A stretch of DNA of 64,000 bases, from contig CM046327.1 of assembly GCA_025403435.1 (NCBI GenBank), positions 9,912,218-9,976,217 of the forward strand, in the 5' to 3' direction. Source of the stretch: Artocarpus heterophyllus (Eukaryota > Streptophyta > Magnoliopsida > Rosales > Moraceae). The translations under genes and the position numbers were made by a program. A model generated the notes under the pieces. The model was not told where the DNA came from and did not search any database. It was given only the letters and a program-made list of their open reading frames with translations. Below, in pieces: positions 1 through 55,762 of the stretch; the first letter of the stretch is position 1; each line of letters begins with the position of its first letter.

Positions 1-2699
1 TAAGCATGCATGATATGGATAGCTGGTATACGGAGTGCCTTGTACTCTCGAAACGTATCCGTATTATGTTTGTAATGTGTAATATTCTGTTAATATTATG
101 TGGAAGTACCAGAGTCAGTTATGGGGATATTCCATATGAAATATGAGTATATTATTTGGGTTGAATGTTTGTGTCATGAGGATAGCTGTTTAATGAAAAA
201 TATGTCGGGTATGTTTGCAACTCTGAGATTCCGCTTAATATCTCTATGAGTAAGTTTAATGTATAGTTTTGAATAAAAGTGTTTGTGATATATGTTTTAT
301 GATTATGTTTTAGTTTATTAGTTGAGGTATGAAATCAAATATATTTGACTTTTCCTTACTCAAAAAGGAAAAGGAACCTAAAGATGAAGTATATAAAATT
401 TCTCTGGCAATCTCCTTAAATGTGATTGTAAATCACAGGTCCATGGACAATGAAGGACTGGAATCATGGTATGGTAAATATGTATGCCTGATCAGATTCT
501 TAGACTATTATACGGTGTTACAAGTTGAAACTTGTCAAAATACTCTCATTGAGGGATTTAGGAGTAAGATTTATTATGCAAGTAAATAAGTGGAGATACG
601 ATGACTTAAATTTGAAGGACAAACAACATTAACGGTTTAGACTCGGAATTGGAATCATAATGGAATTAAAATTTTTACTAGTATTGCTAGAATTGAAATT
701 TCGAGGACGAAATTTCTTTAAGGGGGGTAGAGCTGTGACACCCGTTATTCTCCTAACGGGTATTGAGGTAATTAAATTAATTTTTAATGTATAAAAAAAA
801 TTGCTTCATTTAAATTTATTTTACAATATTTATTTTTATCTATTTTTTAAATTTTCTAAAATTCTCCTATATTTATTTAGTATGATTACTAAAAAGCCTT
901 AGAACTTCTAATAAATCTCAAAAATGTCATATTGGCATTATGTGTGTTAAAGTCTTTAGATGAGACATAAGGATATCTTTTCCAACTACTCTTGACCCTC
1001 ATTTTCTTTATTTCCTCCGTGACATGCTTCAACATGTCTCCTCTATAATTGTTTCTATCACTTCTCTTCAAAGACTTCATCTTTTCTTCCTTTCTCTTCC
1101 ACGGTTCCCACACTCTTCTTCTCATTTCTTTGCTGAAGCAAAATACTTAGAGAACTTCTTCAAGGCAGCCATAAAAATCAGCCACCATCACCTCCATTTG
1201 AGCAAGAATTTCAGTCATACCGAAGTAAAGGAACCTGTTTTGAAGCCATTTTAAGCTTCCAACTAACCATAATCCGAGGTTAGAATCTTATGAACAAATT
1301 TAGTCTTTCATTTATAAATTTTCTTTTATACTAAAGGATTATTCAAATTTGCGTTCTTAAACCTAAGTATATGTTTGTTGCTATTTTGGAGCATATGTAT
1401 GAAGTCTAAGTGTATATGCCCTAGACAGAAAATTTATATTGTTAAACTTTATAATACCTCTATGGGCAGTGGTTATTTCTTAAAATTCTAAGATTAAATT
1501 AAAATAAATTTTATGAATGTAGTTGTATGTTGTGCTTTAGTTTTAATTGTCCTTATGCACGCCTTAGGATCAAGGGAGTATGGAGCTAACGTTAATTGAT
1601 TCCAGGATTAAGAGACTGTTGATAAGCTTGAAAGGTAGGGATTCTATTACTCATCTTTTGTGAGGTTTTTATAGAATTAAAATTGATTGTTTTGCCGCAA
1701 TATATATATATCTATGTTGAACTGATATTATATGATTATCACATATGAAACTATGACATGGACTCGTCTTGTATTGTACGGCGAGGAACATAATGAATTG
1801 ACACATGTTATAAATTGAGAAGCATGGTTAGGAAAACTAACTCTATTGATAATGATTCAATATAGAGAAATTGTGAGACATGAAGAGGGCGACGGTTACG
1901 TCCTTGGGCATGAATACCCTAAAAGGTAAAGTAGGGGGAAGGCGATGACGCTTCCTTGGGTTGAAAGTCCCAGAACACACTGTACAGGAATTGATTTGGT
2001 GAGGACTCGGGGCTTGATGTCCCCTCACCGGAACACCCTTGGAATGTTTATAGGGTGATCAAGTGCGCCCATTTGGGTTTCGATGAGTTGAGTGATACTC
2101 AATTTAACATGGATACCTAGGAACAATGATGATTGGTAATATTTGTATAAATGTGTAATTATGACACTTGGTAATGATTAACTACGGTATCCATAAGATG
2201 TGATCATAATAAACCTCATAATCTGGAATATGATGTAACTTACTAACCATGCAGATTTTAATGTGGTAATGATAGAGGTGAGTAATGGCTTTCTCTACTG
2301 AGCATAGTGTTGCTCATTCCCTTATGTTTATATCTTTTCAGGACTCACTAAGTGTGAGGTGGCTACGAGAAATATAGTTGAGGAAGTGATGTAACTATAT
2401 TACATTGGGACTGCTTCAATCGTTGAGAATGTTCTTCATGATAATGTAAGCATCAATTGTTACTTTCTGTGACTGTATTATAATGTGTTGAGGGTTAAAA
2501 TGATGATGACAACAGTTTATATTATTAAATTTAAGGTGCTACATTAAAACTGTGGTTTATTTGTCGTTTATATTTTTATTTTTGAGTTGAGAGTTTTCAT
2601 TTAAGTCCCGGGCAAATTTTATTTTTAAGGTTTTACTTTTATTATTTATTTTTATTTTATCTCATTAAAAACTGTTAACCCCCATATAGGGGCGTTACA
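1..2699 (+). mobile_element. 3' part of an LTR retrotransposon (same family as the element at 35693-44663), cut by the window edge
   Basis: Positions 1-733 align without length change to 41571-42303 of the intact element, with only scattered substitutions and small compensating indels. They are followed by an LTR at 734-2699. A polypurine tract (aaggggggtagagc) sits directly before the LTR. The LTR begins TGTGACACCCG and ends GGGGCGTTACA. The 5' LTR and both cargo ORFs, if present, lie left of the window. The copy is older than the intact one because its LTR differs from the other two by substitutions and a 387-bp deletion. A small ORF at 329-589 is frameshifted in the other copy and is probably not coding. 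Confidence 0.9.
734..2699 (+). repeat. 3' LTR of the left-hand retrotransposon copy (1966 bp)
   Basis: It starts TGTGACACCCG and ends CGTTACA like the 2360-bp LTRs at 35693 and 42304. It lacks a segment corresponding to 36471-36857, which is flanked by the direct repeat TTATGAAT. This is the signature of a deletion between short repeats. A few further small indels account for the rest of the length difference. Confidence 0.92.
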
Positions 2700-35687: not shown

Positions 35688-35692
35688 GTTCC
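35688..35692 (+). repeat. Target-site duplication GTTCC, left copy
   Basis: GTTCC directly precedes the 5' LTR at 35693. The same five bases follow the 3' LTR at 44664-44668. Confidence 0.95.
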
Positions 35693-38052
35693 TGTGACAC
35701 CCGTTATTCTCCTAACGGGTATTGAGGTAATTAAATTAATTTTTAATGTATAAAAAAAATTGCTTCATTTAAATTTATTTTATAATATTTATTTTTATAT
35801 ATTTTTAAATTTTCTAAAATTCTCCTATATTTATTTAGTATGATTACTAAAAAGCCTTAGAACTTCTAATAAATCTCAAAAATGTCATATTGGCATTATA
35901 TGTGTTAAAGTCTTTAGATGAGACATAAGGATATCTTTTCCAACTACTCTTGACCCTCATTTTCTTTATTTCCTCCGTGACATGCTTCAACATGTCTCCT
36001 CTATAATTGTTTCTATCACTTCTCTTCAAAGACTTCATCTTTTCTTCCTTTCTCTTCCACGGTTCCCACACTCTTCTTCTCATTTCTTTGCTGAAGCAAA
36101 ATACTTAGAGAACTTCTTCAAGGCAGCCATAAAAATCAGCCACCATCACCTCCATTTGAGCAAGAATTTCAGTCATACCGAAGTAAAGGAACCTGTTTTG
36201 AAGCCATTTCAAGCTTCCAACTAACCATAATCCGAGGTTAGAATCTTATGAACAAATTTAGTCTTTCATTTATAAATTTTCTTTTATACTAAAGGATTAT
36301 TCAAATTTGCGTTCTTAAACCTAAGTATATGTTTGTTGCTATTTTGGAGCATATGTATGAAGTCTAAGTGTATATGCCCTAGACAGAAAATTTATATTGT
36401 TAAACTTTGTAATACCTCTATGGGCAGTGGTTATTTCTTGAAATTCTAAGATTAAATTAAAATGAATTTTATGAATTGGTTTGCATATTTGAAAAGTAGC
36501 ATCCTAGGCTTTCTAACGAGCTATCATAAACCTAAATCGGAGTTGTATTTTATTTTCTAAGAATTATTCAATTTTTGTATTGGAAACTAGTAAATCTGTC
36601 AATTTGTTATGGTATACCAGTTGCTAACCTGAACCAAGAACCCATCTTTGCTCACCACCTAATTCTTTAATGTCTTGCAACCTTTCCAATATTATCCTAA
36701 GTGATTGATGAATCTTATTAGGGACTAAAACATATAGATTACTTGTTCACATTTTATATTGTGTTAAGACAAAAATTGTTTACTGTGGTATTCAAAAGAG
36801 ATTTATATAAAAGCTTTAATGGCATACTAGTAAGATAGGTTTACACATGATTTATTTATGAATGTAGTTGTATGTTGTGCTTTAGTTTTAATTGTCCTTA
36901 TGCACGCCTTAGGATCAAGGGAGTATGGAGCTAACGTTAATTGATTCCAGGATTAAGAGACTGTTGATAAGCTTGAAAGGTAGGGATTCTATTACTCATC
37001 TTTTGTGAGGTTTTTATAGAATTAAAATTGATTGTTTTGCCGCAATATATATATATCTATGTTGAACTGATATTATATGATTATCACATATGAAACTATG
37101 ACATGGACTCGTCTTGTATTGTACGACGAGGAACATAATGAATTGACACATGTTATAAATTGAGAAGCATGGTTAGGAAAACTAACTCTATTGATAATGA
37201 TTCAATATAGAGAAATTGTGAGACATGAAGAGGGCGACGGTTACGTCCTTGGGCATGAATACCCTAAAAGGTAAAATAGGGGGAAGGCGATGACGCTTCC
37301 TTGGGTTGAAAGTCCCAGAACACACTGTACAGGAATCGATTTGGTGAGGACTCGGGGCTTGATGTCCCCTCACCGGAACACCCTTGGAATGTTTATAGGG
37401 TGATCAAGTGCGCCCATTTGGGTTTCGATGAGTTGAGTGATACTCAATTTAACATGGATACCTATGAACAATGATGATTGGTAATATTTGTATAAATGTG
37501 TAATTATGACACTTGGTAATGATTAACTACGGTATCCATAAGATGTGATCATAATAAACCTCATAATGTGGAATATGATGTAACCTACTAACCATGCAGA
37601 TTTTAATGTGGTAATGATAAAAACCTAAAGGTGGGTAATGGCTTTCTCTACTGAGCATAGTGTTGCTCATTCCCTTATGTTTATATCTTTTCAGGACTCA
37701 CTAAGTGTAAGGTGGCTACGAGAAATATAGTTGAGGAAGTGATGTAGCTATATTACATTGGGACTGCTTCAATCGTTGAGAATGTTCTTCATGATAATGT
37801 AAGCATCAATTGTTACTTTCTGTGACTGTATTACAATGTGTTGAGGGTTAAAATGATGATGACAACAGTTTATATTATTAAATTTAAGGTGCTACATTAA
37901 AACTGTGGTTTATTTATCGTTTATATTTTTATTTTTGAGTTGAGAGTTTTCATTTAAGTCCCGGGCAAATTTTATTTTTAAGGTTTTACTTTTATTATTT
38001 ATTTTTATTTTATCTCATTAAAAACTGTTAACCCCCATATAGGGGCGTTACA
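35693..38052 (+). repeat. 5' LTR (2360 bp)
   Basis: TG...CA ends, followed by AGAATTTT-free spacer GAATTTT and the primer site. It is the same length as the 3' LTR, and side-by-side reading showed no mismatch. Confidence 0.95.
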
Positions 38053-38059
38053 GAATTTT

Positions 38060-38091
38060 TGGTATCAGAGCCTAGGTTCGGTTAACCTAGG
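38060..38091 (+). other. Primer binding site for initiator tRNA-Met, followed by a perfect 8-bp hairpin
   Basis: TGGTATCAGAGCC (38060-38072) complements the 3' end of plant tRNA-iMet. It runs into CCTAGGTT (38071-38078), a 5-nt loop and AACCTAGG (38084-38091). Such a hairpin could serve RNA dimerisation or packaging, but that role is inferred. Confidence 0.85.
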
Positions 38092-39530
38092 GAGTGTAGC
38101 ACCACTTTAAAAAAATATATTTTTGAGATGGTTTTGAAGCTGAATTTTTATTGTCATCATCAAAATGAACCTTCACATTGATTTATACAGTCTAGAAGGA
38201 TGTAACATGGAAAGGCCATAGAATGAAAATATCAATAGTTATATGAGTACAATAATTATATAGAAGGAAAGTATTAATAGTTATAAGGGAATGATAATTA
38301 TATGGAATGAGTTTATAAGTAGAATGCTTATGAGAGATTCGTATAATATTTGGATCTATAAGCATATTTAATTCGTATAAACGATGAGAAATTCGTATAG
38401 ATACGAGGATTTAAAAGCCTTTTGTCTCGTGAAAAACAATAAGAAATATAAGGCTTGATTTATTGATTTTAAAGTTTGGCATATTTTTCGTAATTGATTC
38501 AAACCTAAGTAATGATTATGTGTGGATTCGATGGAGCACATAAGTGTCAATGTCTTTTCTTGAAAGTTCTATTTATTTGAGGAATATGATATAAGTTGGA
38601 AATCATGGTATTGAATCATGAGAGAGATAAATGTTAGACTTTTGGTCTGTTGAGACTGTGTAAAGTCTAGAATGCATGAATCTCAAAATTGGAATATTTT
38701 GTTACGTACATTGTATTTAAGTGTATCAGTGAATCTTTTGGTTACCTAAGGTTTTGTTATATGAGGAAATTATATATTGTATAAGTAGAATTGTGGGGAT
38801 TGTAGATGTTCTTAAGTAGTAACATCAAGTGTCTTTGTTCATTTATATGGTCTACGTTGGAAGACGTAAATCGTATTGATTTCAAGGTTAGTCGCATTCT
38901 AAACCCTTGGTAGTAATGATGATGAATCCATTGATAGATGTTAAGTATTATGAATAACATATGGGTGTATGTATTGTTCAATAAAGTTTTGATTAAAACA
39001 AAATCATTTGAGTTGCTGGAAGATTGTGTTGTTATGAAATGATTTTAAATACCATTCAGGAAGATCCTTGTTGTCGTTAAATTAGATTTGTTGTTTATAG
39101 TCAACTTTATCTATAGTGGACTTTGAATTGGATTTAAGATTTATACAAATTGGTTTTCAATTTTATGTTTGTTATTTAACTCGTTCTAAATGTGTTAAGG
39201 CCCGAAACAACCTGACCATTTTCAACTTAGAACATTTGGGCCTAGTTCAAATCTTAAATCAGTTTGATTCACACTGTCTCTCCCACGTGGTCTCTATACG
39301 TGTCATATACAGTGGTTTAATTATTGTTTACATATACGTTTACTGTGCATAAGAGTTTATTTCTCCGAGTTCACTTTTTCTCTCTTAATTTGTTATTTTC
39401 TCTCTAAATCGCAAATCCTCTTCTTTTTCATTAAAAATTCTTCTTTTTCTCTAAAAGAAGAAGGAATTCTAGGATTCTGCAATTTACTATCTTAATTTTT
39501 CCTTTCTATTTACTCTTCTTTCATCTCATC
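38092..39530 (+). promoter_or_regulatory. Long leader of the retrotransposon with a candidate internal promoter
   Basis: About 1.4 kb without a plausible ORF. Near its end, CCCACGTGGTC (G-box, about 39286-39296) lies upstream of a CT-rich stretch (39360-39525) that looks like a plant 5'UTR and ends directly at the start codon of the first ORF. A captured promoter or an LTR-driven leader are both possible. Confidence 0.35.
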
Positions 39531-40052
39531 ATGGACCCAAAGTACCAACACATGAGAAAGTATTTCCCATCACTCTCCCAAAAGATTCTCAGAAAGAAAT
39601 ATAAGGCTAGAATTACTCGGTTGTGGATTCTTATGCGTTTTGGTATCCCTTGTGATGTGAGAATGTTAATAGAGGGGAAGATCCGTCCGAGTGACTTTAG
39701 TCAAGATGTCGGTTTACCAGGAACAGGTACCAGTCGTAGTGCAATGAAAAGAAGAGCTCGTGCCATCGTGGTCACTTGTAACAAATGTGGAAGACAAAAT
39801 TGTAACGGTAAATGTACTTCACCTGGTTATATGTCTACGAATAGAGAGGATAAAATAAGGTTTTGTAGGGATGGACTTTCAAAGGAGAACTTGGATAGCA
39901 TCCATCCTCCTCTCCACGGTCACCCTAGTGGATATGTTCAAGGAGCTATTTTTAAACTCTGGCCTAAATTTTATACAGAAAGACAACGCCTCAGGAATAT
40001 GGTATTTCTAGATCCTGTTTGCCAAGCCATAAGAAAACTGGATGGGGAATAA
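39531..40052 (+). CDS. Basic Cys4 protein, resembling the cysteine-rich nucleic-acid-binding proteins of plant betaflexiviruses (cargo ORF 1)
   Basis: A complete 173-aa frame with a true ATG after a CT-rich leader. The N-terminal third is basic and amphipathic (KILRKKYKARITRLWILMR), followed by GIPCDVRMLI. Residues 61-79 read GLPGTGTSRSAMKRRARAI, and then comes C83-X2-C86-X4-C91-X3-C95 with CGR and NGKC inside. The order of hydrophobic N-terminal part, Gly/Ser turn, Arg-rich basic patch and Cys4 finger is that of the small cysteine-rich proteins (CRP/NABP) of carlaviruses and relatives, which bind nucleic acid and affect silencing and host transcription. The region after residue 110 has no match I can name. 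The alternative is a degenerate gag zinc knuckle, but the spacing (CX2CX4CX3C instead of CX2CX4HX4C) and the lack of other gag features argue against it. The relationship is inferred by motif only. Confidence 0.5.
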   Translation: MDPKYQHMRKYFPSLSQKILRKKYKARITRLWILMRFGIPCDVRMLIEGKIRPSDFSQDVGLPGTGTSRSAMKRRARAIVVTCNKCGRQNCNGKCTSPGYMSTNREDKIRFCRDGLSKENLDSIHPPLHGHPSGYVQGAIFKLWPKFYTERQRLRNMVFLDPVCQAIRKLDGE

Positions 40053-40697
40053 GTCATCGCACTATAAAGGTTATTTTGTCTTTGCTTATTTGAAGCAGTT
40101 TTAGCTGATGTTCAACAGTTTGTGTTTTTCTTTTACTCAGAATATTTGCTTTTGTGTTTGAAATAATTGTGATTATTAGATTGATACAGTAAGTGTTAAT
40201 ATCTTATTTAATTTATGATTTTCTTAAATATATATATATAATAAAATATATTATCTTATCAGACACGTTACATACGGTACAGTAATATGTTTGAATTTTG
40301 AAAAACTTATCCAGATATTTCAAGATTTGTGTCTCAAATTTCAAAAGTTCTACAGTATTTGTCGTTTATATTAAATTTCTAGACTTGGTGTATATTTGTC
40401 AAAAAGTCTACAGTTGTGTCATGAGGGTCTTCTGTCGAATTGTTCTCAATTGTCAAAAGTTATACAATTAGAGTCTAATCTTTTTCAAAAAGTGAATCAG
40501 ATTTTTTGTAAACTATCAATCACCTTATCTTACTTTCTTATCCGCACAATATTTTGTTTAAATCTTTGGATTACCTTTTCATTACCTACTCGTCTATCTC
40601 TTTAGCCCTTTTTGTATATTTCTCATCTTTAAAAACTCATGTAGAACCCGAAGTCTAAGTGGAGCAGACATTAAGCAACCACTTCTATAAACCAAAT
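40053..40697 (+). other. Intercistronic region between the two cargo ORFs
   Basis: 645 bp of AT-rich DNA. The 69-codon ORF at 40396-40605 has no recognisable domain. How the second ORF is translated is unclear: it may have its own promoter, be spliced, or be expressed poorly. Confidence 0.4.
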
Positions 40698-41348
40698 ATG
40701 TCTACCTCCCAGTCCACGAAGAAAATAAAGAATGTCTGTGTCTTTTGTGGTTCCAGCCTTGGAAAAGATAAAGCCTATTTAGAAGCTGCAAATCACTTAG
40801 GGCAAGTCCTAGCACGCAAGAAGATTAACATAATCTATGGGGGTGGTAGTATAAAAATGATGGTAAATATGGCACTAGCAGCTAGGTCTAGCGACGCTAC
40901 TGATGTAAGAATTTGGCCTCATATTCCAGTTGAAGGAAACCTTTGTAAGGAAGCCATAGGTAAGGGAGAAGGAGTCAGGAGTATCCCTAAAAATTTTAAA
41001 GACATAATCTATAATTCTGATGCTTTTATAGCATTACCTGGTGGTCTAGGTACTCTTGAGGAAATATTTATAGTTGCTTGTGGGCAATTGTTGGGCTTTT
41101 ATTCCAAACCTTTGGGACTGCTGAATGTAAATGGTTTTTATGACGGTCTTTTGAAATTTCTAGATTACGCTGTGGAAGAAAACATCACTACAGAATCGGA
41201 GAGACAAATCTTTGTCACTGCTTCAACAGCTGAGGAATTGATAGATAAAATGCAAATCATACATCCAGAATCCGACACTGCAACATCCAAGCTTGAATGG
41301 GAAAGGGAAAGCCGGGAGCGGCCAATTGATTTGAATCTCCATCTGTAA
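40698..41348 (+). CDS. LOG-like protein (cytokinin riboside 5'-monophosphate phosphoribohydrolase family), retrotransposon cargo ORF 2
   Basis: A complete 216-aa frame from MSTSQSTKK. The longer frame starts at a GTG and is not used here. The length is typical of plant LOG proteins. Visible family parts are VCVFCGSSLGKDKAYLEAA (Rossmann start), INIIYGGGSI, DAFIALPGGLGTLEE (the PGGxGTxxE signature, intact), and KPLGLLNVNGFYDGLLKF with DYAVEENIT. LOG enzymes cleave ribose phosphate from cytokinin nucleotides to release active cytokinin in the cytosol. Two sites depart from the family: GGGSIGLMG has become GGGSIKMMV, and the Met-X2-Arg-Lys segment before the signature is absent (SIPKNFKDI). The middle (residues about 60-90) is strongly diverged. 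Activity is therefore uncertain. The frame is intronless although plant LOG genes have several introns, which suggests capture through RNA. Confidence 0.85.
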   Translation: MSTSQSTKKIKNVCVFCGSSLGKDKAYLEAANHLGQVLARKKINIIYGGGSIKMMVNMALAARSSDATDVRIWPHIPVEGNLCKEAIGKGEGVRSIPKNFKDIIYNSDAFIALPGGLGTLEEIFIVACGQLLGFYSKPLGLLNVNGFYDGLLKFLDYAVEENITTESERQIFVTASTAEELIDKMQIIHPESDTATSKLEWERESRERPIDLNLHL

Positions 41349-42289
41349 TCTTTTTGTTTTATCTTTGGCATGTAGGCATGTGTGTCCGTATTTCGTGTGT
41401 TACGAATAACCGTTTGCCTTGTATTCTGTGTTTCTTGTGGTACGTTGTTGTTCAATCTTTTAGATTCATTGAGCCTAATGCCGGGATGGCTGGATACGGA
41501 GTACTTGATGCTCTCGAAACGCATCCTTCTTAAGGTCCGATCTTTTGTTTATCGATGTTTTTGTATCCTATAAGCATGCATGATATGGATAGCTGGTATA
41601 CGGAGTGCCTTGTACTCTCGAAACGTATCCGTATTATGTTTGTAATGTGTAATATTCTGTTAATATTATGTGGAAGTACCAGAGTCAGTTATGGGGATAT
41701 TCCATATGAAATATGAGTATATTATTTGGGTTGAATGTTTGTGTCATGAGGATAGCTGTTTAATGAAAAATATGCCGGGTATGTTTGCAACTCTGAGATT
41801 CCGTTTAATATCTCTATGAGTAAGTTTAATGTATAGTTTTGAATAAAAGCGTTTGTGATATATGTTTTATGATTATGTTTTAGTTTATTAGTTGAGGTAT
41901 GAAATCAAATATATTTGACTTTTCCTTACTCAAAAAGGAAAAGGAACCTAAAGATGAAGTATATAAAATTTCTTTGGCAATCTCCTTAAATGTGATTGTA
42001 AATCACAGTCCATGGACAATGAAGGACTGGAATCATGGTATGGTCAATATGTATGCCTGATCAGATTCTTAGACTATTATACGGTGTTATAAGTTGAAAC
42101 TTGTCAGAAATACTCTCATTGAGGGATTTAGGAGTAAGATTTATTATGCAAGTAAATGAGTGGAGATACGATAACTTAAATTTGGAGGACAAACAACATT
42201 AACGGTTTAGACTCAGAATTGGAATCATAATGGAATCAAAATTTTTACTAGTATTGCTAGAATTGAAATTTCGAGGACGAAATTTCTTT
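41349..42289 (+). other. 3' untranslated part of the retrotransposon interior
   Basis: No supported ORF. It contains a diverged repeat pair, 41488-41526 and 41591-41630 (both CTGG.ATACGGAGT...CTCTCGAAACG.ATCC). The part from 41571 on is shared with the left-hand copy at 1-733. Confidence 0.6.
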
Positions 42290-42303
42290 AAGGGGGGTAG
42301 AGC
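42280..42303 (+). other. Polypurine tract of the retrotransposon
   Basis: TTTCTTTAAGGGGGGTAGAGC lies directly before the 3' LTR. It is preceded by CGAGGACGAAA, as in Tekay/Del elements. This is the plus-strand primer site. Confidence 0.85.
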
Positions 42304-44663
42304 TGTGACACCCGTTATTCTCCTAACGGGTATTGAGGTAATTAAATTAATTTTTAATGTATAAAAAAAATTGCTTCATTTAAATTTATTTTATAATATT
42401 TATTTTTATATATTTTTAAATTTTCTAAAATTCTCCTATATTTATTTAGTATGATTACTAAAAAGCCTTAGAACTTCTAATAAATCTCAAAAATGTCATA
42501 TTGGCATTATATGTGTTAAAGTCTTTAGATGAGACATAAGGATATCTTTTCCAACTACTCTTGACCCTCATTTTCTTTATTTCCTCCGTGACATGCTTCA
42601 ACATGTCTCCTCTATAATTGTTTCTATCACTTCTCTTCAAAGACTTCATCTTTTCTTCCTTTCTCTTCCACGGTTCCCACACTCTTCTTCTCATTTCTTT
42701 GCTGAAGCAAAATACTTAGAGAACTTCTTCAAGGCAGCCATAAAAATCAGCCACCATCACCTCCATTTGAGCAAGAATTTCAGTCATACCGAAGTAAAGG
42801 AACCTGTTTTGAAGCCATTTCAAGCTTCCAACTAACCATAATCCGAGGTTAGAATCTTATGAACAAATTTAGTCTTTCATTTATAAATTTTCTTTTATAC
42901 TAAAGGATTATTCAAATTTGCGTTCTTAAACCTAAGTATATGTTTGTTGCTATTTTGGAGCATATGTATGAAGTCTAAGTGTATATGCCCTAGACAGAAA
43001 ATTTATATTGTTAAACTTTGTAATACCTCTATGGGCAGTGGTTATTTCTTGAAATTCTAAGATTAAATTAAAATGAATTTTATGAATTGGTTTGCATATT
43101 TGAAAAGTAGCATCCTAGGCTTTCTAACGAGCTATCATAAACCTAAATCGGAGTTGTATTTTATTTTCTAAGAATTATTCAATTTTTGTATTGGAAACTA
43201 GTAAATCTGTCAATTTGTTATGGTATACCAGTTGCTAACCTGAACCAAGAACCCATCTTTGCTCACCACCTAATTCTTTAATGTCTTGCAACCTTTCCAA
43301 TATTATCCTAAGTGATTGATGAATCTTATTAGGGACTAAAACATATAGATTACTTGTTCACATTTTATATTGTGTTAAGACAAAAATTGTTTACTGTGGT
43401 ATTCAAAAGAGATTTATATAAAAGCTTTAATGGCATACTAGTAAGATAGGTTTACACATGATTTATTTATGAATGTAGTTGTATGTTGTGCTTTAGTTTT
43501 AATTGTCCTTATGCACGCCTTAGGATCAAGGGAGTATGGAGCTAACGTTAATTGATTCCAGGATTAAGAGACTGTTGATAAGCTTGAAAGGTAGGGATTC
43601 TATTACTCATCTTTTGTGAGGTTTTTATAGAATTAAAATTGATTGTTTTGCCGCAATATATATATATCTATGTTGAACTGATATTATATGATTATCACAT
43701 ATGAAACTATGACATGGACTCGTCTTGTATTGTACGACGAGGAACATAATGAATTGACACATGTTATAAATTGAGAAGCATGGTTAGGAAAACTAACTCT
43801 ATTGATAATGATTCAATATAGAGAAATTGTGAGACATGAAGAGGGCGACGGTTACGTCCTTGGGCATGAATACCCTAAAAGGTAAAATAGGGGGAAGGCG
43901 ATGACGCTTCCTTGGGTTGAAAGTCCCAGAACACACTGTACAGGAATCGATTTGGTGAGGACTCGGGGCTTGATGTCCCCTCACCGGAACACCCTTGGAA
44001 TGTTTATAGGGTGATCAAGTGCGCCCATTTGGGTTTCGATGAGTTGAGTGATACTCAATTTAACATGGATACCTATGAACAATGATGATTGGTAATATTT
44101 GTATAAATGTGTAATTATGACACTTGGTAATGATTAACTACGGTATCCATAAGATGTGATCATAATAAACCTCATAATGTGGAATATGATGTAACCTACT
44201 AACCATGCAGATTTTAATGTGGTAATGATAAAAACCTAAAGGTGGGTAATGGCTTTCTCTACTGAGCATAGTGTTGCTCATTCCCTTATGTTTATATCTT
44301 TTCAGGACTCACTAAGTGTAAGGTGGCTACGAGAAATATAGTTGAGGAAGTGATGTAGCTATATTACATTGGGACTGCTTCAATCGTTGAGAATGTTCTT
44401 CATGATAATGTAAGCATCAATTGTTACTTTCTGTGACTGTATTACAATGTGTTGAGGGTTAAAATGATGATGACAACAGTTTATATTATTAAATTTAAGG
44501 TGCTACATTAAAACTGTGGTTTATTTATCGTTTATATTTTTATTTTTGAGTTGAGAGTTTTCATTTAAGTCCCGGGCAAATTTTATTTTTAAGGTTTTAC
44601 TTTTATTATTTATTTTTATTTTATCTCATTAAAAACTGTTAACCCCCATATAGGGGCGTTACA
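42304..44663 (+). repeat. 3' LTR (2360 bp)
   Basis: Same length and ends as the 5' LTR. It is followed by the target duplication GTTCC at 44664-44668. Confidence 0.95.
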
Positions 44664-45523
44664 GTTCCCATGAGGATTGCATTAATCTAGCTAAGTACCG
44701 AAATTGGTTAACCCTAAAATTATTTGAACAATCAAATATAAAATAGAAAAATAACCAAACAAAAAATATAAATGAAAACCTAAATAATAAAAGACTATGG
44801 CATCCGATTTCACCTAAATTAATCCTATTCAAATTATCTAACTTAATCAACTGATGTTTACTCCTATGCCGATAACGAAGTTCTCTTAGGTAGTCATTAA
44901 TCTTTCTCAAACATTAATAATTTATCCTAGTTAGCAAATTTCCTACAACTCTGTGGAAACTCTAAACTTACCGAGATTCATTAAGAACAAGAAATTCATA
45001 GTGTTACACAAGTCTCATAGATATCTCTATCCTATGATGATCTCATGGCATTCAATCATGGTCTAATTTAATTATCACTTCTCAGCCTCAAATTAAATCA
45101 CAAATCATGCAAAAGGTGCGCAAACTTTTACAAGCATTAAGATTAGATTAAACACTCAGCATAGATAATGAATAAACATCGAATTGAATTAAATTAAATA
45201 AAAGTGAACATTCATAATCCGGCTACATCGTAGCCCTAGAATAGAGAAAATTAGTTCCTAATGAAACTAAAAACAATCCTAAATAATGTCTTAAACATGA
45301 TGAGTGAAGGAAAAGAACTGTGTTTAGATGCGAAGATGGTTTCCGTCTCCGGGTTGCACCGTTCTTCTTTCTTCTCCAAAGCAGTGAGTTCTCCCCTCTT
45401 GTTTGTAGTTTTCCTTCTTTAGAATTTGTGTTCCAACCCTCTATAATGTTCTATTTATAGGTTAGGGTTTGAAAAGGTAATTTTGAAACGAAATTACACT
45501 GAAATTTGGACTGGAATCGTAAT

Positions 45524-51412: not shown

Positions 51413-52204
51413 TGTTGCAGATGTGGAGCCAAATCAAGTTGACAACCCAGCAAAAGGAAGGAAAATGGAGAAAATCGCGTCCTCGAAGGCAGAGAGCAAG
51501 CGCCGCGGCTCTGGCAGAAGAGCGCCGCGGCGCTGGGATGAGGACGCCTAGGCGCCATAAGGAGAGCGCCTAGGCGCCAGGTGAATTGCGCCTAGGCGCA
51601 ATGTGGCAAGCGCCTAGGCGCCAAGATGTTTATGCCGAGGCGTCGAGTTGATGGCGCCTAGGCGCCAGGTGAAGAGCGCCTAGGCGCCGCAGGGGAGCGC
51701 CGCAGCTCTCGTTTCGAGCGCCTCGGCGCTGACGCGCTGTGCTGCGCGATGTTTTTGAATCAGAGTCGAATTCAAAGGTCCCAAAAACGGGAAACCACTA
51801 GGGTTTCCCATTAGTTGCTATTTTCTCCTCCTTTGGTTATAAATAGACACAAGGTGGCTAGGGTTGGGTGTGTGAAAGGTGTGTGAAAAGTGTGAGTGGC
51901 ATAATTTTGTGAGAGGCAAAATTCTTGAGAGCTCTATCCTTGAGAGAGAAAAAATTCCCATTGGGTGTTAGATAGAAGAGAGTTTTGGTAAGCACAATTT
52001 GTGAGTGTGTGAGAAACTGCTCTTGTAATCTGTAATCTCCTTCATCATAGTGGAATCTGCAAGCGGCAGAAACAGGACGTAGTCTCAATTTGGACGAACC
52101 TGTATAAAAATTTGGTGTCTCTTTTCTTCTTTTCTCCTATTTATTTTTCTGCAATTGTTCGTTCTTGCGATCCTTGGAATTAGGAGTCGCCTAATTCCCC
52201 AACA
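51413..52204 (+). repeat. 5' LTR of the copia element (792 bp)
   Basis: TG...CA ends and TATA box TATAAATA at 51838-51845. The U3 part contains the 22-bp palindrome array at 51499-51730. It is 39 bp shorter than the 3' LTR. Confidence 0.93.
51499..51730 (+). repeat. Array of eleven 22-bp units centred on GCGCCTAGGCGC / GCGCCGCGGCGC palindromes
   Basis: Unit starts read at 51499, 51521, 51543, 51565, 51587, 51609, 51631, 51653, 51675, 51696 and 51717, a period of 21-22 bp. The central units carry the perfect palindrome GCGCCTAGGCGC and the outer ones GCGCCGCGG. It is strongly GC- and CpG-rich within AT-rich DNA and lies about 110-340 bp upstream of the TATA box. A matching array is in the 3' LTR (about 55018-55279). 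Confidence 0.9.
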
Positions 52205-52206
52205 AA

Positions 52207-52220
52207 TGGTATCAGAGCGG
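52207..52220 (+). other. Primer binding site (tRNA-iMet) of the copia element
   Basis: TGGTATCAGAGCGG, two bases after the 5' LTR end. Confidence 0.9.
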
Positions 52221-52238
52221 AGGTTTTGATCAAGAACG

Positions 52239-53112
52239 ATGACTGGAGAAGAAGGTATGGCAGCCGGCATCACCAAATTTGATGGTTCAGATTTTTCCTA
52301 TTGGAGGATGCAAGTAGAGGGCTACCTATACAGCAGGAAACTGCACTTGCCCTTGGGTAGTAAGCCCGAAGGCATGAAGGATGAGGAGTGGAGTCTCCTT
52401 GATAGACAGGTACTCGGTGTGATCCGTTTGACTTTGTCAAAGAACGTTGCCCACAACGTTGCGAAGGAGACCACTACAGCAGGGATGATGAAGGCTCTGT
52501 CAGAGATGTATGAGAAGCCCTCAGCCAATAACAAGGTACATCTCATGAAGAAGCTCTTTAATTTAAAGATGTCTGAAGGTGCCTCGGTGGTAGAGCACCT
52601 GAACAGTTTCAACACCGTTCTAAACCAATTGGTCTCGGTAGAGATTAAATTCGAAGATGAGATCAATGCTCTAATCCTTTTGGCCTCGTTACCGAATAGT
52701 TGGGAACCCATGAGGGTGGCCATTACAAATTCGCTTGGGAATGCCAAATTAAAGTTTGTTGATGTCAGAAATTCTATTCTGGCGGAAGAAGTTCGCAGGA
52801 AGGACTCAGGAGAAGCCTCTTCGTCGAACTCGGCCCTTAATGTTGATAATAGGGGCAGGAAACTTGATAGGCAATCCAACAGGGATAATGGCAGGAGAGG
52901 CAAGTCGAGGAATGGGAGAAGCAAGTCAAGGAACGGTAGGACTATGGAGTGTTGGAACTGTGGGGAAGACGGGCCACTTGAAAAAGAACTGCAGGGCTCC
53001 AAGGAAGAATGAAGACAAGACTAATGAAGCAGCCAACGCCGCCACTGAAGAGCAACAGGATGCTTTAATCTTGTCTGTCGACAGTTCTTTTGATTCGTGG
53101 GTGATGGATTAG
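52239..53112 (+). pseudogene. copia gag with a frameshift in the zinc knuckle, running into a broken protease start
   Basis: The frame from 52239 (257 codons) has the copia gag features: FDGSDFSYWRMQVEGYL near the N-terminus, then the UBN2-type capsid region. A basic Arg/Gly/Ser stretch leads to CWNCGE, where a frame change near 52965 disrupts the CX2CX4HX4C knuckle. The rest of the knuckle is in the overlapping frame that continues to 53112. That frame ends DSWVMD followed by a stop, where copia proteases have their D-S-G active site. So both the gag end and the protease start are broken. Confidence 0.88.
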
Positions 53113-54470
53113 GAGCATCATTCCACACCACAGCACACCGTCATGTCCTGGAGAACTACGTTGCTGGAAATCATGGTAAGGTTTATCTCGCTGATGGAGA
53201 ACCTTTGGATATAGTTGGCATTGGAGATGTCAGTTTAAAATGCCTAATGGGTCGGTATGGAAGATTCATAAGGTGAGACATGTTCCAAAATTAATGCGCA
53301 ACTTGATTTCGGTGGGGCAACTGGATGATGATGGACATAAAGTAACCTTTAATTGTGGAGGTTGGAAAGTCACGAAAGGAGCGATGGTTATTGCTCGGGG
53401 ACGCAAGGCTGTAACTCTCTACATGAACTCAAGTTGCAAAGATACCCTAGCAGTTGCTGATTCTGCTGCCAATACTGAGCTATGGCATTATAGGCTTGGT
53501 CACATGAGTGAAAAGGGTATGAAGGTGCTTCACTGCAAAGGAAAACTACCGGGTTTGAAAACTGTTGATCACTGTTTGTGTGAAGCCTGCATCTTTGGTA
53601 AACAGAAGAGAGTCAGTTTCTCAAAGATGGGTAGAGAGCCTAAGTCCAGGAAATTGGAGCTTGTTCACACTGATGTGTGGGGGCCCTGCGCCGGTGACTT
53701 CCCTTGGTGGCGCAAACTACTATGTGATGTTCATTGATGACTCAAGCAGGAAGGTATGGGTTTACTTTCTGAAAAAACAAATCTGATGTGTTCGATGCTT
53801 TCAAGAGATGGAAAGCCATGGTGGAGAACGAGACAGATTTGAAGGTGAAGTGCTTGCAGTCTGACAATGAGGGAGAGTACCTAGGTGAAGATTTCAGGCG
53901 GTACTGTGCTGAGAATGGGATAAAGATGAGGAAGACCATTCCAGGGAAACCACAACAGAATGGGATAGCTGAGAGGATGAACAGGACTTTAACGAGCGTG
54001 CTAGGAGCATGAGGTTACATGCAGGGCTGCCAAAGATGTTTTGGGCTGAGGCGATTAACACAGCCGCTCATCTGATCAACAGAAGTCCATCCACACCGCT
54101 GAAGTTCAAGCTACCGGAAGAAGTCTGGAGCCATAAACAGGTTGATCTCTCTTACTTGAGAGTGTTTGGTTGTGTTTCCTATGCACACATTGATTCTGCT
54201 GCTAGAAGTAAACTGGATGCCAAGTCAAAGAAGTGTTTTCTGGTTGGCTATGGCGGACTTGAGTTTGGTTATCGTCTCTGGGATGACCAAAGCCGGAAGA
54301 TTATCAGGAGCAAGGATGTGATCTTCAACAAAGGTGTTCTGTACAAGGACAGAGACAGCACGGACTCCAGGGGTTCAGGTTCTGAAGATAAGAAGCCTGA
54401 GGTGATTCCATTGAAGGATCTGCCTGAAGTGGAGTTGCAAAATCCAGAGGTTGAAGACCAGGAAACATAG
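53113..54470 (+). pseudogene. copia pol remnant: pre-integrase zinc domain and integrase core, in several frames
   Basis: The pieces at 53240-53737, 53565-53786, 53788-54012 and 54009-54470 together cover the GAG-pre-integrase zinc region (HYRLGHMSEKGMK, CEACIFGKQKR), the first integrase Asp (HTDVWGP), the second (SDNEGEY) and the Glu-bearing QQNGIAERMNRT. The C-terminal part reads LRVFGCVSYAH. Frame changes near 53700, 53780 and 54005 and a stop at 54468 make it non-functional. Confidence 0.88.
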
Positions 54471-54568
54471 CTCCAGAAGAAAACCAGAGGACTCCTGCCA
54501 CACCAGTCAGGAGGTCTAGCAAGACAATCAGACCACCGCAGAGATACTCCCCAACTCTGCATTACATC

Positions 54569-54871
54569 TTGTTGACCGACAGAGGTGAGCCAGAGAGCTT
54601 TGATGAAGCCGTGGAGGCTGGAGATTCGGTCAAGTGGGAGTTAGCCATGAGGGACGAGTTGGATCGGACATGGCAACTGGCAAAGTTACCACAGGGTAAA
54701 AAGTCCTTGCACAACAAGATGGTATACCGGGCAAAAGATAAAAGTGCTGGCAGCAAGCGGTATAAGGCAAGGTGGGTGGTAAAAGGATCAAGAGATATGC
54801 TCACCAAGATGGATCCGATTGAGAAACTGAAGTTGTGCGCAACTTCAGTTGGACTTCTCCATGAGGCATGA
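54569..54871 (+). pseudogene. Fused edges of copia reverse transcriptase and RNase H
   Basis: The frame begins in the conserved start of the reverse transcriptase domain (MRDELDRTWQLAKLPQGKK, then KRYKARWVVKG). It jumps directly to the very end of the RNase H region (DMLTKMDPIEKLKLCATS, then VGLLHEA-stop). The YVDD catalytic site and all between are missing, so most of RT and RNase H (more than 1 kb) has been deleted. Confidence 0.85.
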
Positions 54872-54919
54872 GAAGTCATTGCCGCTGCAGTGGGGAGACA
54901 TGGTGAATTGATTAGTCTC

Positions 54920-54931
54920 CAAGTGGGAGAT
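54920..54931 (+). other. Polypurine tract of the copia element
   Basis: AAGTGGGAGAT directly before the 3' LTR, the standard copia plus-strand primer. Confidence 0.85.
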
Positions 54932-55762
54932 TGTTGCAGATGTGGAGCCAAATCAAGTTGACAACCCAGCAAAAGGAAGGAAAATGAAGAAAATCGCGTC
55001 CTCGAAGGCAGAGAGCAAGCGCCGCGGCTCTGGCAGAAGAGCGCCGCGGCGCTGGGATGAGGGCGCCTAGGCGCCATAAGGAGAGCGCCTAGGCGCCAGG
55101 TGAATTGCGCCTAGGCGCAATGTGGCAAGCGCCTAGGCGCCAAGATGTTTATGCCGAGGCGTCGAGTTGATGGCGCCTAGGCGCCAGGTGAAGAGCGCCT
55201 AGGCGCCGCAGGGGAGCGCCGCAGCGCTCGTTCGAGCGCCGCAGGGGAGCGCCGCAGCGCTCGTTTCGAGCGCCGCGGCGCTGACGCGCTGTGCTGCGCG
55301 ATGTTTTTGAATCAGAGTCGAATTCAAAAGGTCCCAAAAACGGGAAACCACTAGGGTTTCCCATTAGTTGCTATTTTCTCCTCCTTTGGTTATAAATAGA
55401 CACAAGGTGCGCTAGGGTTGGGTGTGTGAAAGGTGTGTGAAAAGTGTGAGTGGCATAATTTTGTGAGAGGCAAAATTCTTAAGAGCTCTATCCTTGAGAG
55501 AGAAAAAAATTCTCATTGGGTGTTAGATAGAAGAGAGTTTTGGTAAGCACAATTTGTGAGTGTGTGAGAAACTGCTCTTGTAATCTGTAATCTCCTTCAT
55601 CAATAGTGGAATCTGCAAGCGGCAGAAACAAGACGTAGTCTCAATTTGGACGAACCTGTATAAAAATTTGGTGTCTCTTTTCTTCTTTTCTCCTATTTAT
55701 TTTTCTGCAATTGTTCAGTTCTTTGCGATCCTTGGAATTAGGAGTCGCCTAATTCCCCAACA
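54932..55762 (+). repeat. 3' LTR of the copia element (831 bp)
   Basis: TATA box at 55391-55398. It differs from the 5' LTR by point changes and by about 39 bp of extra repeat (a duplicated GAGCGCCGCAGGGGAGCGCC segment near 55215-55260), so the insertion is older than the nested element. Confidence 0.92.

What the first reader, a model, noticed from the sequence alone, without database searches (positions are those of the whole stretch)
35693..44663. A recently inserted LTR retrotransposon whose whole coding capacity is cargo: a Cys4 protein and a LOG-like protein
The sequence shows an intact 8971-bp element with 2360-bp LTRs that look identical, a GTTCC target duplication, a primer site and a polypurine tract. 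It has no gag or pol. Instead it has two complete ORFs with no retrotransposon ancestry. Plant elements with a captured host fragment are known (maize Bs1 is the classic case). An element that has replaced all of its own genes with a cytokinin-type enzyme homologue and a possibly viral-type nucleic-acid-binding protein is something I do not know of. If expressed, it could alter host development or silencing to its own benefit.
Basis: partly seen in the sequence, partly recalled or inferred. Interest (0 to 1): 0.93.

Follow-up and report, generated by a model that had tools for sequence, protein, structure and literature searches.

The report
Gag-pol-less retrotransposon keeping two accessory genes
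A young, abundant jumping gene in a plant genome lacks every gene needed to copy itself, yet keeps two other intact genes, one resembling a plant-virus zinc-finger protein and one a hormone enzyme that seems to have lost its catalytic residue, as if it were a satellite that helps itself while borrowing another element's machinery.

Summary
Window 35693-44663 is a complete LTR element: LTRs identical at 2360 of 2360 bases, GTTCC duplication, primer site, polypurine tract, no gag-pol, two intact ORFs. It is one of many. Twenty of the 40 scored leader hits were fetched as 10-kb stretches: 18 are collinear elements of about 8.2 kb without gag-pol, one has a broken 3' LTR, one is nested and cut off. 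Of 36 alignable copies ORF1 is intact in 35, the LOG-like ORF in 32. Variants shared between copies are short of amino-acid changes (13 of 31; p about 2e-4), but controls temper this. The 3' end resembles that of chromodomain elements in the same genome. ORF1's relatives match carlavirus cysteine-rich protein profiles. The LOG-like protein lacks the catalytic arginine in 42 of 42 copies, so "cytokinin enzyme" is probably wrong. A LOG domain is already reported in Ty3/gypsy consensuses (PMC9289625). New here: an abundant family whose only genes are accessory. Function is inferred; no gag-pol partner was found.

The parts
35688..35692 (.). target site duplication GTTCC, left
35693..38052 (+). 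5' LTR, 2360 bp, TGTGACACCCG...GGCGTTACA; holds about 378 bp (36477-36854) absent from the LTRs of 18 of the 20 fetched copies (1964-1987 bp)
38060..38072 (+). primer binding site TGGTATCAGAGCC (initiator tRNA-Met type; type recalled)
   Evidence: read
39531..40052 (+). ORF1, 173-aa Cys4 protein: KRRAR block then C-x2-C-x4-C-x3-C; relatives match Carla_C4/Viral_NABP
   Evidence: intact in 35 of 36 aligned copies
40698..41348 (+). ORF2, 216-aa LOG-like protein; PGGLGTLEE kept, conserved Arg replaced by Asn99, GLMG region changed (K53, V56)
   Evidence: intact in 32 of 36 aligned copies
42269..42303 (+). polypurine tract block TTTCGAGGACGAAATTTCTTTAAGGGGGGTAGAGC, similar to the block behind pol of chromodomain elements of the same genome
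   Evidence: BLAST, two loci; by eye, five more
42304..44663 (+). 3' LTR, identical to the 5' LTR
44664..44668 (.). target site duplication GTTCC, right
1..2699 (+). 3' part of a second copy (end of internal region plus a short-type 3' LTR), 98-99% identical

Best explanation
The element is a non-autonomous, satellite-like derivative of a chromovirus (Tekay/Del type by recalled features). It keeps LTRs, primer site and polypurine tract, so gag-pol proteins of autonomous chromoviruses could package, reverse-transcribe and integrate it in trans (inferred from anatomy; the partner is not identified). In place of gag-pol it carries two accessory genes that appear to be held by purifying selection across rounds of copying (supported for ORF1, weak for ORF2). 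ORF1 most likely works like carlavirus cysteine-rich proteins: a basic, zinc-finger nucleic-acid-binding protein that weakens host silencing or switches on transcription, to the benefit of the family's own RNA (inferred). ORF2 is a LOG-fold protein that has lost phosphoribohydrolase activity (predicted) and was perhaps reused as a ligand-binding or dimerising partner (guess).
For: Complete element, identical LTRs, TSD. Of 20 fetched stretches, 18 hold a collinear element of 8150-8224 bp with two LTRs and no room for gag-pol; 17 have matching 5-bp duplications (16 different ones), 12 of those 17 no LTR mismatch (up to 2 gap columns). First-look candidates 5817 (ORF1), 6125 (LOG), 2355 (leader); of the best-scoring ones listed, 150 of 150 ORF1 hits are 99-100% identical and stop-free and 149 of 150 LOG hits stop-free. 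Variants in two or more copies: ORF1 9N/12S against 74.5% N expected (p=0.002), LOG 4N/6S against 72.6% (p=0.03), combined p=1.7e-4; no off-frame of either ORF gives a signal. 3' block: 91% over 33 bp and 80% over 49 bp in the two chromovirus ends compared by BLAST, similar by eye in five more; Chromo domain PF00385 in the two translated. Uninterrupted frames of 1554 or 1578 aa around the integrase SH3 domain in 13 of 150 listed hits. Carla_C4 in 15 of 16 and Viral_NABP in 13 of 16 members of ORF1's alignment at E<=0.1, best 3.5e-7 and 1.9e-7. Carlavirus CRPs are said to share silencing-suppressor function (PMC12172455, passages).
Against: No expression, small-RNA or protein data. No gag-pol element with this LTR was found: 7 chromovirus ends read of 150 listed hits (13035 candidates), and the pattern search for a partner never ran. 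Two of 9 non-coding control frames also reach p<0.03 (0.026, 0.029), so the LOG result alone is weak. Single-copy variants, expected near neutral, lean synonymous too (ORF1 16N/11S p=0.06; LOG 18N/15S p=0.02), so part of the signal may come from the null model. In the 36-copy set ORF1 diversity (.0137) is not below the spacer (.0126); only LOG is (.0076). The LOG-like protein sits on a very long branch, i.e. altered constraint. ORF1 alone is below Pfam cut-offs and its fold model is poor (pLDDT 56.6). One of 40 copies lacks ORF1 and one lacks LOG in the stretch fetched.
Confidence: 0.57

Rival explanations
1. An autonomous master (gag-pol plus the same two accessory ORFs) still exists; these copies are its deletion derivatives and the selection was exerted on the master.
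For: LOG/YgdH domain in LTR-retrotransposon consensuses that were built around a reverse transcriptase, from two Citrus species and, with a looser filter, P. trichocarpa (PMC9289625). Only 40 leader hits were scored of 2355 candidates.
Against: 18 of 20 fetched stretches are collinear gag-pol-less elements and L025's internal region is too (L020 is cut off). At least two LTR-length variants exist among gag-pol-less copies, which suggests copying in that state.
Confidence: 0.2
2. Passive cargo: the ORFs are intact only because the burst is very recent.
For: 12 of 17 LTR pairs have no mismatch. Some copies already carry stops or frameshifts (LOG 4 of 36, ORF1 1 of 36). Single-copy variants and two of nine control frames show part of the same lean; ORF1 diversity is not below the spacer's in 36 copies.
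Against: Shared variants are short of amino-acid changes, combined p=1.7e-4. ORF1 has relatives of similar length in other plants with conserved Cys and basic residues. Two contig-length coincidences suggest the pair also exists elsewhere.
Confidence: 0.16
3. Active hormone cargo: the LOG-like protein releases free cytokinin and alters host cells.
For: LOG fold match to At2g37210 (2a33, 1.2e-43); PGGLGTLEE kept.
Against: The arginine found in 113 of 119 listed relatives is Asn in 42 of 42 copies; in CgLOG the residue at the equivalent spacing (Arg99) is a proposed catalytic residue and alanine changes of the active-site residues, Ser19 excepted, almost abolish activity (PMC4979012, passages).
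Confidence: 0.04
4. A fragment of an endogenised carlavirus-like RNA virus was picked up by the element.
For: Carla_C4/Viral_NABP similarity.
Against: No other sense ORF of 90 aa or more, hence no further viral gene seen. Of the 120 listed relatives the 9 with an organism name are plants; the other 735 of 855 hits were not listed.
Confidence: 0.03

Closest known systems
LTR-retrotransposon consensuses of Citrus and Populus with a YgdH/LOG domain (Alvarado-Marchena et al. 2022, PMC9289625, section 12 read; it cites Steinbauerova et al. 2011, not held)
   Same: LOG-type domain as an extra domain of a plant LTR retrotransposon
   Different: Those consensuses were built around a reverse transcriptase; here no gag-pol is left and a second accessory ORF is present
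Phalaenopsis Gypsy elements with an AlkB RNA demethylase (PMC9289625, passages)
   Same: accessory ORF thought to counter host control
   Different: 25-kb elements with Gag and Pol, different protein
Retand elements with antisense TRP28 ORF (PMC11963269, passages)
   Same: accessory ORF predicted to bind DNA; 10 of 63 clusters lack some gag-pol domain
   Different: other lineage, antisense ORF, most gag-pol domains kept
LARD/TRIM non-autonomous LTR elements and maize Bs1 (recalled)
   Same: no usable gag-pol; must move in trans
   Different: LARDs and TRIMs have no conserved coding capacity; Bs1 cargo is a host fragment
Carlavirus cysteine-rich / nucleic-acid-binding proteins (PF01623, PF05515)
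   Same: profile matches across ORF1's relatives; basic block followed by a Cys4 motif
   Different: window ORF1 itself is below the profile cut-offs; it is coded by plant DNA
Begomovirus betasatellites (recalled; analogy only)
   Same: satellite without replication genes that codes a suppressor-type protein
   Different: DNA virus satellites; no relation by descent

Membership tests
LTR retrotransposon | paired LTRs, TG..CA ends, target duplication, primer site, polypurine tract | tested here: met
Non-autonomous LTR retrotransposon | no gag-pol in the copies | tested here: met
   window copy and 18 of 20 fetched stretches collinear with it, plus L025's internal region; L020 cut off; the other copies were read only over the ORFs
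Tekay/Del chromovirus lineage | 3' polypurine block like that of chromodomain elements | tested here: met
   two by BLAST, five more by eye; that these are Tekay rather than another chromovirus clade is recalled, not tested
Tekay/Del chromovirus lineage | own reverse transcriptase placed in the clade | tested here: not met
   no RT in the element; hence 'derivative of', not 'member of'
LOG phosphoribohydrolase | sequence match to LOG structures and PGGxGTxxE motif | tested here: met
LOG phosphoribohydrolase | catalytic Arg and Glu | tested here: not met
   Glu122 kept, Arg replaced by Asn99 in 42 of 42 copies; residues named for CgLOG in PMC4979012 (passages), equated by spacing, not by an alignment with CgLOG
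Carlavirus-type CRP / NABP | Pfam Carla_C4 or Viral_NABP above cut-off | tested here: inconclusive
   window ORF1 is below both cut-offs; 15 of 16 alignment members match Carla_C4 at E<=0.1, best 3.5e-7
Carlavirus-type CRP / NABP | silencing suppression or transcription-factor activity | not testable with these tools
   needs a bench assay

The most novel reading that the evidence does not exclude
A retrotransposon counterpart of a helper-dependent satellite: a family that dropped all replication genes but kept, by selection, a viral-suppressor-like zinc-finger gene and a LOG pseudoenzyme, and thereby became a numerous, very young family while using chromovirus proteins in trans.
Probability: 0.38. 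Interest if true: 0.9.

Novelty: new variant of a known kind. Interest (0 to 1): 0.75.

Why it matters
Accessory ORFs of plant retrotransposons are usually studied beside gag-pol, where their own contribution is hard to separate. Here accessory genes are all that is left, so what they do for the element can be tested apart from replication genes. If ORF1 suppresses silencing, this would link a plant RNA-virus protein family to retrotransposon counter-defence and would show that non-autonomous elements can be more than passive parasites.

Tried and rejected
Rejected: single capture of flanking DNA (both ORFs recur in copies with different target duplications); active cytokinin enzyme; viral contigs as a source of ORF1 relatives (54 pattern matches, none confirmed). 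A fold search for ORF1 was not started because the model was poor. The search for a gag-pol partner by LTR start plus polypurine pattern did not complete. Papers, seen as listings: titles and abstracts showed none joining carlavirus-type proteins with LTR elements; (PF01623) listed two papers on methylglyoxal genes; one search found none; one search found only PMC9289625 for YgdH with retrotransposon.

Rows set aside before counts: L020 and L054 (the fetched stretch ends inside the LOG ORF), L045 (ORF1 not found in the 2001 bp fetched), L052 (LOG ORF not found in the 2001 bp fetched) were left out of the 36-copy alignment. In one search L020 was left out and 19 fetched copies plus the window copy were used. 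Six copies chosen by ORF1 (L009, L010, L013-L016) were used for LOG only, in the 42-copy rows. One search stopped with an error before any variant count and was repeated.
Full report
WHAT IS THERE. Window 35693-44663 is a complete LTR element. Its two 2360-bp LTRs agree at 2360 of 2360 bases, begin TGTGACACCCG and end GCGTTACA, and are flanked by GTTCC. Just inside are a TGGTATCAGAGCC primer site and, before the 3' LTR, the purine run AAGGGGGG. The 4251-bp internal region holds two complete sense ORFs and no gag or pol frame: ORF1 of 173 aa and a LOG-like ORF of 216 aa (229 from an upstream GTG). A second copy's 3' part lies at window 1-2699.

IT IS A LARGE YOUNG FAMILY. The window lies in a 985-Mb assembly of 334 contigs. 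A 600-bp leader query gave 2355 first-look candidates (40 scored); ORF1 gave 5817 (150 scored) and the LOG-like ORF 6125 (150 scored). Candidates are not confirmed copies, and the scored ones are the best. Of these, 150 of 150 ORF1 hits are 99-100% identical and stop-free; 149 of 150 LOG hits are stop-free. I fetched 20 of the 40 leader hits as 10-kb stretches (ranks 9-28). Eighteen hold an element of 8150-8224 bp with two LTRs, collinear with the window element and so without room for gag-pol. L025's 3' LTR breaks off, and L020 is a copy interrupted by another copy that runs off the stretch. Seventeen have matching 5-bp duplications (16 different sequences); 12 of those have no LTR mismatch (up to 2 gap columns) and five have 1 to 3. 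L033 has 16 mismatches in 1972 and abuts Ns. The LTRs of these 18 are 1964-1987 bp; the window copy's hold about 378 bp more.

ARE THE ORFS MAINTAINED? Of the 40 leader-chosen copies (window copy included), 36 could be aligned over both ORFs; L020, L045, L052 and L054 were set aside (reasons in Tried and rejected). ORF1 is intact in 35 of 36, the LOG-like ORF in 32 of 36. Variants seen in two or more copies are 9 nonsynonymous to 12 synonymous in ORF1 (74.5% nonsynonymous expected from the family's own non-coding mutation spectrum; p=0.002) and 4 to 6 in LOG (72.6% expected; p=0.03); together 13 of 31, p=1.7e-4. Against this: single-copy variants, which should be nearly neutral, lean the same way (ORF1 16/11, p=0.06; LOG 18/15, p=0.02). 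The same count in nine non-coding frames of the 20-copy alignment gave two with p of 0.026 and 0.029, while the off-frames of both ORFs gave none. Diversity in 20 copies is .0160 leader.0130 ORF1.0134 spacer.0072 LOG.0168 3' part; in 36 copies ORF1 is .0137, spacer .0126, LOG .0076. So constraint is likely for ORF1 by variant type, and for LOG by low diversity; neither is proven.

WHERE THE FRAME COMES FROM. SH3 domains of chromovirus-type integrases are abundant here (13035 candidates, 150 scored), and 13 of the 150 lie in uninterrupted frames of 1554 or 1578 aa; the rest of those frames was not checked for gag and RT. I read the DNA behind seven of the 150. The two compared by BLAST share with the window a block before the 3' LTR (91% over 33 bp, E 1.8e-6; 80% over 49 bp, E 5e-7), and the other five show, by eye, the same block with a few changes. 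The two translated ends hold a Chromo domain (PF00385). The element is therefore a likely derivative of a chromovirus, Tekay/Del type by recalled features. Two broad LTR groups were seen among the seven; neither matches the window LTR beyond roughly its first dozen bases, so the partner is not identified.

ORF1. Alone it scores below Pfam's cut-offs. A first search found 15 relatives at E<=1, and a profile of these plus ORF1 found 855 proteins at E<=0.01, of which 120 were listed; the 9 listed with an organism name are from Xanthoceras, Populus, Acer, Hibiscus, Rhamnella and Orobanche. In the 16-member alignment, 15 match Carla_C4 and 13 Viral_NABP at E<=0.1. 104 of 126 sequences hold C-x2-C-x4-C-x3-C, and the positions of the KRRAK and NREDKI blocks are at least 90% conserved. 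Carlavirus CRPs are said to act as silencing suppressors (PMC12172455, passages). That ORF1 acts likewise is inference. Its AlphaFold model is poor (pLDDT 56.6).

ORF2. It matches Arabidopsis LOG structures (2a33, 1.2e-43) and 6535 proteins at E<=0.001, 120 listed. The arginine present in 113 of 119 listed relatives is Asn99 here, and the GLMG turn is changed as well. In CgLOG, Arg99 and Glu122 are the proposed catalytic residues and alanine changes of the active-site residues, Ser19 excepted, nearly abolish activity (PMC4979012, passages); I equate the positions by spacing. Asn99 is present in 42 of 42 aligned copies, Glu122 too. In a quick tree of 120 LOG proteins, in which P0016 (listed as 100% identical) stands for this family, its branch is by far the longest. 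A catalytically dead LOG fold is the simplest reading.

IS THE PAIR OLD? Two contig lengths, 8723 and 4511, appear both in the ORF1-relative and the LOG-relative lists with a shared data source; among contigs of 4-100 kb (17 and 20) a double coincidence arose in 6 of 20000 jittered trials. This suggests, without proving, that the pair travels together in other plants. A LOG (YgdH) domain in LTR-retrotransposon consensuses of two Citrus species and, with a looser filter, P. trichocarpa is in print (PMC9289625, section 12; it cites Steinbauerova et al. 2011, which I could not read).

VERDICT. Real, recent and high-copy, and probably not passive. It is best seen as a non-autonomous chromovirus derivative whose only genes are two accessory genes, the first possibly counter-defensive. 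The kind (non-autonomous LTR element; accessory ORF) is known; the combination, accessory genes kept with all replication genes gone, I did not see in the listings and passages of the papers searched.

Noticed in passing
window 36477-36854 (and the same part of the 3' LTR): About 378 bp inside the LTR are absent from the LTRs of 18 of 20 fetched copies (1964-1987 bp); both LTR-length variants include copies with identical LTRs.
   Followed up: partly
window 41494-41532 and 41598-41636: Two direct repeats (79% alike over 39 nt) sharing ATACGGAGT and CTCTCGAAACG downstream of the LOG-like ORF, possibly a cis signal.
   Followed up: no
window 39376-39530 and 40576-40640: By eye, pyrimidine-rich stretches before each ORF and a CACGTG box at 39284-39289 resemble plant promoter and leader sequence; each ORF may have its own transcript.
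   Followed up: no
window 51413-55762: A Ty1/copia-type element (gag PF14223) with direct repeats 94% alike at 51413-52204 and 54932-55762.
   Followed up: no
L055 about 790-1500: By eye, a copia-type reverse transcriptase fragment follows the start of a chromovirus 3' LTR, probably a nested insertion.
   Followed up: no
   Followed up: partly
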